Source: Platanthera guangdongensis
Lineage: Eukaryota > Streptophyta > Magnoliopsida > Asparagales > Orchidaceae
Assembly (NCBI GenBank): GCA_039583875.1
Contig: CM077162.1
Location: 112,126,589-112,190,588 of the forward strand
Length of the DNA stretch: 64,000 nt
Direction of reading: 5' to 3'
In this document: positions 32,259-40,786 of the stretch, one piece after another
Position numbering within the stretch: position 1 is the stretch's first letter
Layout of the letters: each line of letters starts with the position of its first letter
Made by a program: the position numbers and the translations under genes
Notes under the pieces: generated by a model
The model's input: the letters and a program-made list of their open reading frames with translations, nothing else
What the model was told of the DNA's origin: nothing
Databases searched by the model: none

Positions 32259-34108
32259 TGTCACAACCCGCATTTTCACCGCAAATAAAGCTTATCAGAG
32301 TAAGGGAAAATGCGTGTCATGATGCCACATCAGCAGGGGATAACTGCGGACGCTCAGGCAGACACCAAACTAATCATGAAGAAAGGTTCCTTTTAAGATA
32401 TTTTAAGGAAAATCAGTTAAGTGCAGTAGTTAGCCGTATCCCTCAGCCTAGTGGCTCATCTAGTCCATGAATCAAAATATATTATACGCTGCGAAAAACT
32501 ACTTGATTAGATTAACTCAGTCATCCTACATGAGCAAAACGTCCCAAAAGGACAACTCATGCTATGCAAAACTCTAAATTTATTATAGTAGGAAAGATAG
32601 CTTTTACGGTCGTTAAAAATAACAAGTTAGAGTTTCAAAATTATACGATGCATGAAGTAGTAGTAGTAGATTTTATAGTCGAAAATACCTAACATGCATT
32701 CCTAACATAAATCCTCCCATAGAACAAGTAATCCACATTCACATATAAAGAAATGAGCAGCTAGCAAGTATCAACAACTAACAATTCAGTGGGCGCCAAC
32801 AAACTGACACGAACCCACGAACAAAAGTATGTGTGAACTAGTAAAACTAAACCAACAACAAACTACATCGCTATGACAAGGCAACAACCGAGGCCAACAC
32901 TGCCGCCAGAAATCCAACACCAGCACTGCTAACTGTTACTGCTCTGAACCTGAGGCATTCCAAAAAACAGAACACCTCAGCAAGAAGGTACAAGTAGTAG
33001 CAGGAAAAGTAATAAAACAAAATAATCAAAGGGTCAACCGGGGTACCAACCCAAGACAAGAAGTAATGAAGTACACAAGACAACAGGGCATCAACAGGAA
33101 AAGAACTCCTACGTGACTTGTCACGTTCCACAAGGGTGCACCAGACGCACATGGCTATAAGGTGACTACATAAATATTTCTCCAGAAAGAAAATACAAAA
33201 CCTTCATTGAAGGAAAAATACAAAACCTTCATTAGGCACATGTGGTCGACTCTACCCAAAAACACGGCGAGGTGGTCACTCTTGGACATACCACCCAAAA
33301 ACAACAACGGGCAAGGTGGTCACTATTGGACACACCACCCAAAAATGAAACGGATATATAATCCGTCTAACTGCGAGGGAGTCTCATACTCTCCACCATA
33401 CACCGCAGACATCCAAAAACCAGGTAGACTTCCACAGGACACTAATGAAGGTAATAAACACTGCGGAGGTGGAATCGTCCACTAACTCCCGTATTCAAGA
33501 AACCCCAAGAAACCACAACACAAATACCTTGAGATTTGGCTCGACATATTCTACTTGACATTACCGAACTCAAAACGCGGTTGATCAACCTGTAGGAGCA
33601 ATTTACAGTCCTGGATATATTCTAACGTATTTAATAACGGAAACTAAGGCACTTAAAGCCATCATGAGACACTTCAAGAACGATCAACACATCCGGACAA
33701 AATCAGGTTTACCATGACGAAACATTACAACATCATGTGATCATTGAGAAGTTAAATCATAACAATAATTTGCAAGAATAAGTGTAGAAAATTTAAGGAA
33801 CATGAAAACATAGCCGTTACCATCAAATTGGACAAGGAGAAACAGGGGAAACCACCACTTGCCTTGGTTTTACCAGAAAAGTCCTCTAAATCGCTCCACG
33901 TCGTAGATCGGGGCAAAAGATTGCGGGAGGAGTTGAAATCTAGACAAAAATGGCCAAAATAGAGGTTAGTGCCGAAAAACCCTAACGAGAAATCTCAAGA
34001 AACGGGGAAGATATTACCACGATGGCGTAGCTCTCGGCAAGAGCGTTCCGGATCTATGATCGGTTTGAAATTCCGAGCATCGGAGCACCATCAACAGCCA
34101 CCGGAAGG
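32259..34108 (-). repeat. Inverted R-U5 part of the CTCGAG-family LTR
   Basis: The reverse complement aligns with the LTR from about 49659 (TTCTTCCGGTGG, roughly 80 bp after the TATA region) and with 41030-42918 to the LTR end. It therefore covers nearly the whole transcribed part of the LTR and nothing upstream of it. It joins pol sequence at 34108/34109 with only a few bases of possible overlap (GAA). No coding capacity is expected; small ORFs here are incidental. Confidence 0.85.
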
Positions 34109-35328
34109 AATAGAACCGTGAAGGGAGAGCTACCTGATTTCTCTGTGGATGAGTTGGACACCTTGAACTATCGGGGTAGATTTTGAGTCCCCGCCTTTGG
34201 CGATATTTGAGCTAAGATCTGTGTTGAAGCCCATGGTTCCAGTGTATCCTACCACCCTGGTTTCCACTAGGATATATAAAGATCTAAAGCAAATTGTTTG
34301 GTGGTCAGGGATGAAGAATGACATCGCCAGGTTTGTATCGGAATGTTTTACTTGTCAGTGTGTTAAAGCTGATCACAGAAGGCCTGGTGGTAAATTGACA
34401 CCGCTTGATATTCCAAGTTGGAAATGGGAAAGTATTTCAATGGATTTCATCACCTGTCTGCCAAAATCTCCCCGTGGGCATGACTCTGTTTGAGTGATAG
34501 TCGACAGGTTGACAAAGTGTGCTCACTTCGTTCCATTTAAGATTGGGTACTCGATGAAGAAGATAGCTGAGTTATATCTTGAAGAGGTCATCAGGTTACA
34601 TGGTGTGCATGTTAGCATCGTATCAGATCGGGACTCTATATTTACGTCTCGTTTTTGGAAGAGTATACAGGGGCGGTTGGGTACCGATTTAAGGTATTCC
34701 ACCGCCTATCATCCGCAGACTAATGGTCAAACGGAAAGAGTAAATCAAATTATAGAAGATATGATCAGGTATTATATTTTGGATCATGGTGGTGCTTGGG
34801 ATGAGCGTCTCAGACTCATGGAGTTTGCTTACAAAAAAGTTATCAAGAGAGTCTACAGATTGCTCCGTTTGAGGCCTTGTATGGGAGGCATTGTAGAACT
34901 CCATTGTTTTGGGCTGAAGTTGGTGAGAGACCGTTGCTAGGTCCGGAAGCCCTTGAAGAGATGAATTATGCTGTGACTCATATTCGGGAAAAGCTCCGTG
35001 TGGCACAAGAGCACTATGAGAAGTATGCTAATCAGCGAAGGGTCAATCTGGAGTTTGAGGTTTGAGACATGGTTTTTCTGAAGGTTTCTCCGATATCTGG
35101 CGTTAAAAGGTTTGGAAGGAACCACAATTTGGACCCCCGGTATGTGGAACCTTTCCATATTCTTGAGCGCATCGGAGTGTCAGTTTATAGGCTGGAATTT
35201 CCTGTGACCTTCCTTGGTGTCCATGATGTGTTCCATGTGAGCGAGTTGCGGAAGTGTGTTCGTAATGATCGTCAAGTCCTCGACTCGATACCCCAGATTC
35301 AGCCCAACCTTACTTTTATGGAAGATCC
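34109..35328 (+). pseudogene. Integrase pseudogene within left chimeric repeat
   Basis: HHCC region (FVSECFTCQCVKADHRRPGG at 34331-34390), core with SMDFITCLP and VSDRDSIFTS, QTERVNQIIED with catalytic Glu, and the C-terminal region (VFLKVSPISGVKRF, VFHVSELRKCV). Broken by TGA at 34176-34178, an extra T near 34260 (frameshift), TGA at 34491-34493, a frameshift near 34838 and TGA near 35063. The first two TGAs and the extra T are shared with the right repeat. Confidence 0.85.
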
Positions 35329-39517: not shown

Positions 39518-40786
39518 GTCCCCGCCTTTGGCGATATTTGAGCTAAGATCTGTGTTGAAGCCCATGGTTCCAGTGTATCCTACCACCCTGGTTTCCACTA
39601 GGATATATAAAGATCTAAAGCAAATTGTTTGGTGGTCAGGGATGAAGAATGACATCGCTAGGTTTGTATCGTAATGTTTTACTTGTCAGCGTGTTAAAGC
39701 TGATCACAGAAGGCCTGGTGGTAAATTGACACCGCTTGATATTCCAAGTTGGAAATGGGAAAGTATTTCAATGGATTTCATCACCGGTCTGCCAAAATCT
39801 CCCCGTGGGCATGACTCTGTTTGAGTGATAGTCGACAGGTTGACAAAGTGTGCTCACTTCGTTCCATTTAAGATTGGGTACTCGATGAAGAAGATAGCTG
39901 AGTTATATCTTGAAGAGGTCATCAGGTTACATGGTGTGCATGTTAGCATCGTATCAGATCGGGACTCTAGATTTACGTCTCGTTTTTGGAAGAGTATACA
40001 GGGGCGGTTGGGTACCGATTTAAGGTATTCCACCGCCTATCATCCGCAGACTAATGGTCAAACGGAAAGAGTAAATCAAATTATAGAAGATATGATCAGG
40101 TATTATATTTTGGATCATGGTGGTGCTTGGGATGAGCATCTCAGACTCATGGAGTTTGCTTACAAAAAAAGTAACCAAGAGAGTCTGCAGATGGCTCCGT
40201 TTGAGGCCTTGTATGGGAGGCGTTGTAGAACTCCATTGTTTTGGGCTGAAGTTGGTGAGAGACCATTGCTAAGTCCGGAAGCCCTTGAAGAGATGAATTG
40301 TGTTGTGACTCATATTCGGGAAAAGCTTTGTATGGCACAAGAGCGCTATAAGAAGTATGCTAATCAGCGAAGGGTCGATCTGGAGTTTGAGGTTGGAGAC
40401 TTGGTTTTTCTGAAGGTTTCTCCGATGTCTGGCGTTAAAAGATTTGGAAGGAACCACAAGTTGGACCCCCGGTATGTGGAACCTTTCCAGATTCTTGAGC
40501 ACATCGGAGTGTCAGCTTATAGGCTGTAATTGATGTGACCGTCCCAGGTGTCCATGATGTGTTCCATGTGAGCCAGTTATGGAAGTGTGTTCGTAATGAT
40601 CGTCAAGTCCTCGACTCGATACCCCTGATTTAGCCCAACCTTACTAATGTTGAAGAACCTTTCTTCATGATAAGTTGGTGTCTGCCTGGGCGTCCGCAGT
40701 TATCCCCTGCTGGCGTGGCATCATGATGCGCGTTTTCCCTTACTCTGATAAGATGTTTCTTTGTATTGAAAATGCGGGTTGTGACA
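39437..40786 (+). repeat. Right chimeric repeat: pol 3' piece plus 115 bp of U5
   Basis: Partner of 34109-35455; here the pol piece is contiguous with the upstream pol. At about 40668 pol (GTTGAAGAACCT) switches to LTR text (TTCTTCATGATAAG) and ends TTGTGACA at 40786. The intact family member near 48100 reads GTGGAAGAACCTGTTCGTG and the LTR at 42786 GTTCTTCATGG, so GAACCT-type microhomology sits at the switch. Confidence 0.88.
39518..40668 (+). pseudogene. Integrase of the aberrant insert
   Basis: Shares with the left repeat the extra T near 39593 and the TGA at 39822-39824. From 39825 a 234-codon frame covers the integrase core (VSDRDSRFTSRFW, QTNGQTERVNQIIED) and C-terminal region (VGDLVFLKVSPMSGVKRF). 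The end of pol with the CR tail is missing because of the switch to LTR sequence. Confidence 0.88.

What the first reader, a model, noticed from the sequence alone, without database searches (positions are those of the whole stretch)
32259..40786. Integrated retroelement with two inverted U5 ends instead of LTR U3 and U5 ends
Seen: both ends of this insert are the 3' (U5) end of the same LTR, in inverted orientation (TGTCACAACCC...GGGTTGTGACA), with a 5-bp TSD ACCTT, and the empty site is present in the sister LTR near 49377. The left 1.85 kb is the inverted transcribed (R-U5) part of the LTR, starting close to the expected transcription start. Known: integrase of LTR elements processes the terminal bases of each LTR; two U5 ends can both be substrates. 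Inference: minus-strand DNA, after copying to the end of the left repeat, switched template onto minus-strand strong-stop DNA and copied R-U5, giving a linear molecule capped by two U5 ends that was then integrated normally. I know of no described family with this arrangement.
Basis: partly seen in the sequence, partly recalled or inferred. Interest (0 to 1): 0.9.

Follow-up and report, generated by a model that had tools for sequence, protein, structure and literature searches.

The report
Retrotransposon inserted with two U5 ends
A plant-type jumping gene with long terminal repeats seems to have been copied wrongly so that both of its outer ends are the same right-hand end, and yet it was inserted cleanly, which suggests that the insertion enzyme can pair two right-hand ends in nature; it looks like a one-off accident, not a new family.

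Summary
The insert 32259-40786 has the LTR 3' (U5) end at both borders, inverted, with a 5-bp duplication ACCTT; the sister LTR of the older host element carries the uninterrupted site. A normal relative has a 3.1-kb LTR starting TGTAACG; the insert has no complete LTR. Its direct repeats 34109-35454 and 39440-40786 are the integrase 3' end fused to the last 125-126 bp of U5, so PPT, U3 and R are skipped. The left 1850 bp are inverted R-U5. Both fusions lie at short shared words: AAGAACCT (8 nt with the commonest parents, 6 with the insert's own LTR piece) and GGAATA (2-6 nt, depending on parents). Best reading: two misplaced template switches in reverse transcription, one skipping the PPT, one joining strong-stop DNA of a second RNA to the integrase region; then ordinary strand transfer and integration. 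The inner joint lies about 60 nt downstream of the predicted transcription start. Capped genome searches ranked no other copy of either fusion, and a small sample gave no second case. Core interpretation supported; a family is not. No reads were available.

The parts
31238..42918 (+). 5' LTR of older host element B, split by the insert (31238-32258 and 40787 to about 42918)
   Evidence: matches the sister LTR from 48362 on; the two compared halves differ by 11.0% and 11.1%; TGTAACG at 31238 and 48362; U5 end and PBS
32254..32258 (.). left copy of the 5-bp target duplication ACCTT
32259..34108 (-). inverted R-U5 piece of an LTR (1850 bp); its outer end is the U5 terminus
   Evidence: full-length reverse match to family LTRs, best 91%; U5 end 131 bp; TATAAA of 16 of 29 relatives 87-95 bases upstream of the inner end
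34108..34109 (.). joint of inverted R to integrase; shared word GGAATA with the nearest-type parents (2-6 nt depending on parents)
   Evidence: only A spans it beyond the shared letters among 40 scored of 3801 candidates
34109..35329 (+). left direct repeat, integrase 3' part
   Evidence: 96.2% to 39440-40660; Pfam SH3_Tf2-1 in 35066-35380
35330..35454 (+). last 125 bp of U5 (left direct repeat)
35455..35467 (+). GT plus primer binding site TGGTATCAGAG (initiator-tRNA-Met type by recall)
   Evidence: GTTGGTATCAGAG follows U5 in several LTR relatives too
36306..39439 (+). gag, protease, RT, RNase H (open only in pieces)
   Evidence: Pfam Retrotrans_gag, RVP_2, RVT_1, RT_RNaseH in pieces between stops
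39440..40660 (+). right direct repeat, integrase 3' part
   Evidence: SH3_Tf2-1 in 39825-40526; nearest other genome copies 93%
40660..40661 (.). joint integrase / U5; skips PPT, U3 and R; shared word AAGAACCT with the commonest parents (6 nt with A's own inverted LTR)
   Evidence: no other copy ranked
40661..40786 (+). last 126 bp of U5, right end of the insert
40787..40791 (.). right copy of the target duplication ACCTT
49377..49381 (+). uninterrupted target site in the sister LTR

Best explanation
A one-off reverse-transcription product of a Ty3/gypsy element, made by two misplaced template switches and then integrated normally through two U5 ends. (1) Minus-strand DNA started at the PBS of one RNA, copied about 130 nt of U5 and switched at AAGAACCT to the integrase end, skipping R, U3 and the PPT (joint shown; timing inferred). 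(2) It ran on to the PBS (inferred). (3) On a second, slightly different RNA, strong-stop DNA was made to within about 60 nt of the predicted start; its 3' end paired at GGAATA with the integrase part of the minus strand and primed plus-strand synthesis in place of the missing PPT (inferred; the other order, minus strand switching onto strong-stop DNA, gives the same product). (4) The plus strand copied integrase end, U5 and PBS, and ordinary PBS-guided transfer made the direct repeats (inferred; it explains why the left repeat begins exactly at the joint). (5) Both ends of the linear DNA are tRNA-defined U5 ends; integrase trimmed the two bases GT from each and inserted them with a 5-bp duplication (end structure shown, enzyme step inferred).
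For: Target duplication, uninterrupted sister site and two exact U5 ends; GT lies between U5 and PBS and is absent at both borders. Normal relative: 3.1-kb LTR, PPT-like tract, U3 start TGTAACG, duplication ATCCT. Left and right U5 share two G alleles (G in 1 and in 2 of 47 relatives) that the inverted U5 lacks, so the inverted piece likely came from another RNA. In their diverged part the two repeats share 3 sites absent from 27 relatives; 1 of 351 pairs of relatives reaches 3. Neither joint was ranked elsewhere, as expected if both arose in this event.
Against: The two direct repeats are 99.1% alike in the first 650 bp but 93.0% in the next 571; one event predicts even divergence, so later gene conversion must be assumed. 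In bases 650-950, 12 of 16 differences occur in relatives too, as in unrelated pairs (65%). The inverted U5 is 2.4% from its nearest relative, the other two 9.7% and 7.4%. GGAATA depends on the parents: of the 12 nearest LTRs fetched for this joint, 1 continues AATAAGG and 2 AACAAGG, and A's own right copy has GA where GG is needed; 2 nt remain in the worst case, which random joints reach in 0.155 of trials. The inner joint is not at the predicted start. Shared words also fit end joining. No reads.
Confidence: 0.7

Rival explanations
1. Two separate linear cDNAs (a truncated R-U5 piece and an element without a proper left end) were joined head to head by host microhomology end joining, then integrated through the two outer U5 ends.
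For: up to 6 nt shared at 34108/34109; the joint coincides with the left end of the direct repeat
Against: needs a double-stranded R-U5 fragment and leaves the integrase/U5 joint to a separate cause; otherwise the same product
Confidence: 0.15
2. The integrase/U5 fusion pre-existed in a source element or lineage (deleted 3' LTR, or tandem units), and only the left switch is new.
For: the diverged parts of the two repeats are 93.0% alike, close to the mean of pairs of relatives, 93.7%; in bases 650-950, 12 of 16 differences are shared with relatives
Against: no other copy of the joint ranked in the genome; shared private sites link the two repeats; over bases 650-1221, 19 of 40 differences (48%) are shared with relatives, within the 40-57% of six presumed LTR pairs and below the 64% of pairs of integrase relatives
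Confidence: 0.1
3. Two independent insertions, or a later inversion, happen to give two outward U5 ends.
For: the region is full of nested repeats
Against: both ends are exact U5 termini next to the same 5-mer, with an uninterrupted site in the sister LTR; a chance 5-mer match is about 1 in 1024
Confidence: 0.03
4. Assembly artefact.
For: no reads could be checked
Against: borders fall exactly at U5 ends with a target duplication, and the repeats differ by about 4-10%, much for an assembler to confuse
Confidence: 0.02

Closest known systems
Complex LTR retrotransposons made by abnormal template switching in grasses (Sabot and Schulman 2007, PMC1950507; abstract and Results section read)
   Same: single insertion flanked by a 5-bp duplication; structure explained by a misplaced switch between two packaged RNAs; normal integrase step
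   Different: there three LTRs and two cores in direct orientation with normal outer LTRs; here an inverted R-U5 piece and two U5 ends, no complete LTR
HIV-1 proviruses with asymmetric LTRs (PMC9278108; passages seen)
   Same: deletion reaching into the 3' LTR by misalignment in minus-strand synthesis, completed with the second RNA copy
   Different: 5' LTR intact and no inverted end
Self-priming of minus-strand strong-stop DNA (Guo et al. 1997, seen only as cited in passages of PMC4668388)
   Same: strong-stop DNA used as a primer in an aberrant reaction
   Different: there described as aberrant HIV cDNA species; here the product was apparently integrated
Aberrant retroviral integrations with one abnormal end (PMC5041404, PMC8705849; passages seen)
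   Same: abnormal DNA end when the plus-strand start or end sequence is wrong
   Different: there the abnormal end is inserted by host enzymes with rearrangements; here both ends were inserted precisely

Membership tests
Ty3/gypsy LTR retrotransposon | gag, protease, RT, RNase H, integrase in this order | tested here: met
   Pfam hits in pieces for gag, protease, RT, RNase H and integrase SH3 in order; the integrase zinc-binding domain was hit only in element B and in the C1 relative, and no piece tested gave a hit to the catalytic core
Ty3/gypsy LTR retrotransposon | two like LTRs with U3 end left and U5 end right | tested here: not met
   both ends U5; no complete LTR
Ty3/gypsy LTR retrotransposon | PBS after 5' U5 and PPT before 3' U3 | tested here: not met
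   PBS present; the PPT region between integrase end and U3, present in the C1 relative and in B, is skipped
Template-switch complex element | single integration with flanking target duplication | tested here: met
   ACCTT on both sides and uninterrupted sister site
Template-switch complex element | three LTRs in direct orientation around two cores | tested here: not met
   self-comparison; definition
DIRS-like element | inverted ends without target duplication, tyrosine recombinase (recalled) | tested here: not met
   5-bp duplication; integrase SH3 and zinc-binding domains in the family
A transposing two-U5 family | more than one copy with the same joints | tested here: not met
   only A spans either joint beyond the shared letters among the 40 scored hits of each search; an 18-base joint pattern with one mismatch gave 7 hits, 1 of them A, the other 6 not looked at in context, backward control 5

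The most novel reading that the evidence does not exclude
Minus-strand strong-stop DNA can replace the PPT primer: when the PPT is lost in the first strand transfer, strong-stop DNA from the partner RNA primes the plus strand, giving a linear DNA with two tRNA-defined U5 ends that integrase treats as a normal pair. This would be a general salvage route, leaving two-U5 insertions wherever LTR elements are abundant.
Probability: 0.3. Interest if true: 0.7.

Novelty: new variant of a known kind. Interest (0 to 1): 0.5.

Why it matters
If read rightly it is natural evidence that a plant-type Ty3/gypsy integrase can pair and insert two U5 ends precisely, and it records reverse-transcription intermediates that leave few traces: a premature first strand transfer, strong-stop DNA of the partner RNA, and plus-strand synthesis without a PPT. 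Lacking a complete LTR and a PPT, it was probably dead on arrival, so it is a fossil of an error and not a family. A genome-wide screen for insertions bounded by two U5 ends would turn it into a measurable error rate.

Tried and rejected
Normal element with a short terminal repeat at the left: rejected, U3 starts TGTAACG in the relative examined and the inverted match is 131 bp. A family with chimeric LTRs: no other copy of either joint ranked. Recent insertion judged from the 99.1% alike first 650 bp of the repeats: not favoured, because the rest is 93.0% and the nearest relatives are 95.4% and 94.2% for the two parts; gene conversion is the simpler reading. Plus-strand start at a purine tract just before 39440: none seen there. 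Transcription start exactly at 34108: not supported; TATAAA at -87 to -95 in 16 of 29 LTRs puts the start about 60 nt upstream (the spacing of 25-35 nt is recalled), and in the other 13, among them the two best whole-length matches L010 and L011, TATA words lie further up or are missing. A second two-U5 insertion: among the first 100 listed of 10,667 exact U5 ends there are 24 same-strand pairs within 12 kb and no left-minus/right-plus pair within 30 kb; among the first 100 listed of 4,458 ends not followed by G there is one such pair, 27 kb apart, with unequal flanks ACCAG and CGCAT. This samples only part of one contig and exact copies of the end, and says little about rarity. One search aligned minus-strand loci in the wrong orientation and was replaced. 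Chromodomain: not found by Pfam in a relative, so the clade is not named. Ten paper searches ran (others returned no paper); their titles and abstract starts named no two-U5 insertion. The library holds open-licence papers only, so this does not show that none is in print.
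Full report
What is there. A Ty3/gypsy-type element B with LTRs starting TGTAACG at 31238 and 48362 carries in its 5' LTR a second insert, A, at 32259-40786. A is flanked by ACCTT on both sides, and the sister LTR of B has the uninterrupted site at 49377-49381. The two compared halves of B's LTRs differ by 11.0% and 11.1%; A's direct repeats differ by 3.8% in the integrase part and 8.1% in U5, as expected for a younger insert in an older one.

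Both ends are U5. A relative on C1 has 3.1-kb LTRs that start TGTAACG and end GTGACA, a duplication ATCCT, a PPT-like AGGGGG tract before U3, and GT plus TGGTATCAGAG after the 5' U5. A's right end is the last 126 bp of such an LTR; its left end is the same end inverted, 131 bp at 88.8%, followed by inverted LTR up to 34108, 1850 bp in all, which matches family LTRs end to end at up to 91%. The GT between U5 and PBS is absent at both borders, as two-base processing by integrase would leave it.

The body is also abnormal. The direct repeats 34109-35454 and 39440-40786 are not LTRs. Their first 1221 bp are the 3' part of the integrase region and their last 125-126 bp are U5. The stretch of a normal element from the integrase end through PPT, U3, R and most of U5 is skipped. 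Among 40 scored hits of 4068 candidates, only A's own two copies run through this joint beyond the shared word; an 18-base pattern with one mismatch gave 7 hits, one of them A's right copy, against 5 for the backward control, and the other 6 were not looked at in context. The inner joint at 34108/34109 was likewise crossed only by A (40 scored of 3801 candidates). These tools score only the best candidates, so absence is not proof.

Short shared words at both joints. Of 27 integrase loci given, 7 matched my pattern, which itself required CCTGT; all 7 read GTGGAAGAACCTGT. Of 47 LTR loci not from A, 14 matched the LTR pattern; 11 read AAGAACCTTTC and 3 read AAGAAACTTTC. The common parents thus share AAGAACCT, 8 nt; with A's own inverted LTR the word is GAACCT, 6 nt. 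At the inner joint, 21 of 28 integrase loci matched my pattern (one copy is held twice, as L060 and L078) and 17 of the 21 read GGAATAG. A's last bases before the joint match the LTR subtype that continues AATAAGG (L026, L033, L034 and the best hit L081) or AACAAGG (for example L024, L030, L083); of the 12 nearest LTRs fetched for this joint, out of 39 listed beside A, 1 continues AATAAGG and 2 AACAAGG. The shared word is GGAATA for the first type and GGAA for the second; for the least favourable parents 2 nt remain, and A's own right copy has GA in place of GG.

Where the inverted piece begins. In 16 of 29 LTR relatives a TATAAA lies 87-95 bases upstream of the position matching 34108. With the usual spacing (recalled), transcription would start about 60 nt before the joint. 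In the other 13 such words lie further up or are missing. So the inverted piece is strong-stop-like but short of the predicted start.

One event or several. The U5 copies differ pairwise by 8.1% (left and right repeat), 6.6% (left and inverted) and 9.7% (right and inverted). The left and right U5 share two G alleles that only 1 and 2 of 47 relatives have and the inverted U5 lacks: the inverted piece probably came from a second RNA. Over its length the inverted piece is 7.3% from its nearest relative, within the 4.0-11.3% seen for the 29 other LTRs. Against a simple history, the repeats are 99.1% alike in the first 650 bp and 93.0% in the next 571. Two readings were tested: different templates, or an older duplicate with later gene conversion. 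In the diverged part 19 of 40 differences are seen in relatives, against 40-57% in six presumed LTR pairs and 64% in pairs of integrase relatives; but within it bases 650-950 have 12 of 16 and bases 950-1221 have 7 of 24. Three of the six presumed pairs lie 21, 27 and 106 kb apart and may not be single elements. Three sites are shared by the two repeats alone, reached by 1 of 351 pairs of relatives. I favour gene conversion, not firmly.

Mechanism. The whole anatomy follows from two misplaced switches. First, minus-strand DNA of about 130 nt left U5 for the integrase end, losing R, U3 and PPT. Without a PPT, plus-strand synthesis needs another start. If strong-stop DNA of the partner RNA paired with the minus strand inside integrase and was extended, the plus strand would run through integrase end, U5 and PBS, and the ordinary PBS-guided transfer would duplicate exactly the stretch from the priming point to U5. 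That is what the direct repeat is: it starts at the joint with the inverted piece. Both outer ends are then set by the tRNA primer. Recombination between two packaged RNAs is proposed for the plant element Onsen (PMC5668417, passages); Ty3 strand transfers were taken from PMC5371799 (passages), which also says that Ty3 differs from retroviruses in its plus-strand transfer, so step 4 is by analogy.

Comparison and novelty. The closest described cases found are template-switch complexes with target duplications in grasses (PMC1950507, abstract and Results) and HIV asymmetric LTRs (PMC9278108, passages). Neither passage describes an inverted end. Ten paper searches in an open-licence library listed no title or abstract start on a two-U5 insertion; subscription papers are mostly not held. 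I class it as a new variant of a known kind, aberrant reverse-transcription products. It was probably immobile, having no complete LTR and no PPT.

Noticed in passing
34109-34758 and 39440-40089: First 650 bp of the two direct repeats are 99.1% alike while the remainder is 93.0%; looks like gene conversion within an old insert.
   Followed up: partly
16434-25929 and 51104-60205: Two related elements in opposite orientation (terminal repeats 98.2% and 97.4% alike, about 90% between elements) whose repeats hold arrays of units of about 100 bp that are open in several frames.
   Followed up: no
643-8146: A direct repeat pair 96.9% alike around a 1111-codon stretch without stop on the minus strand, 3287-6619, with tandem units of about 90 bp inside the repeat.
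   Followed up: no
50781-51100: The 3' LTR of element B loses similarity to the 5' LTR at 50781, shortly before the next repeat at about 51097; its U5 end was not found there.
   Followed up: no
G000 C1:77650577/77658677 and C1:77712939/77721039: Two U5 ends facing each other 8,100 bases apart, twice, 62 kb from each other; probably a duplicated block.
   Followed up: no
33908-34108: The R start of the inverted piece resembles one LTR subtype while the rest is nearest to others, so its source LTR may itself have been mosaic.
   Followed up: partly
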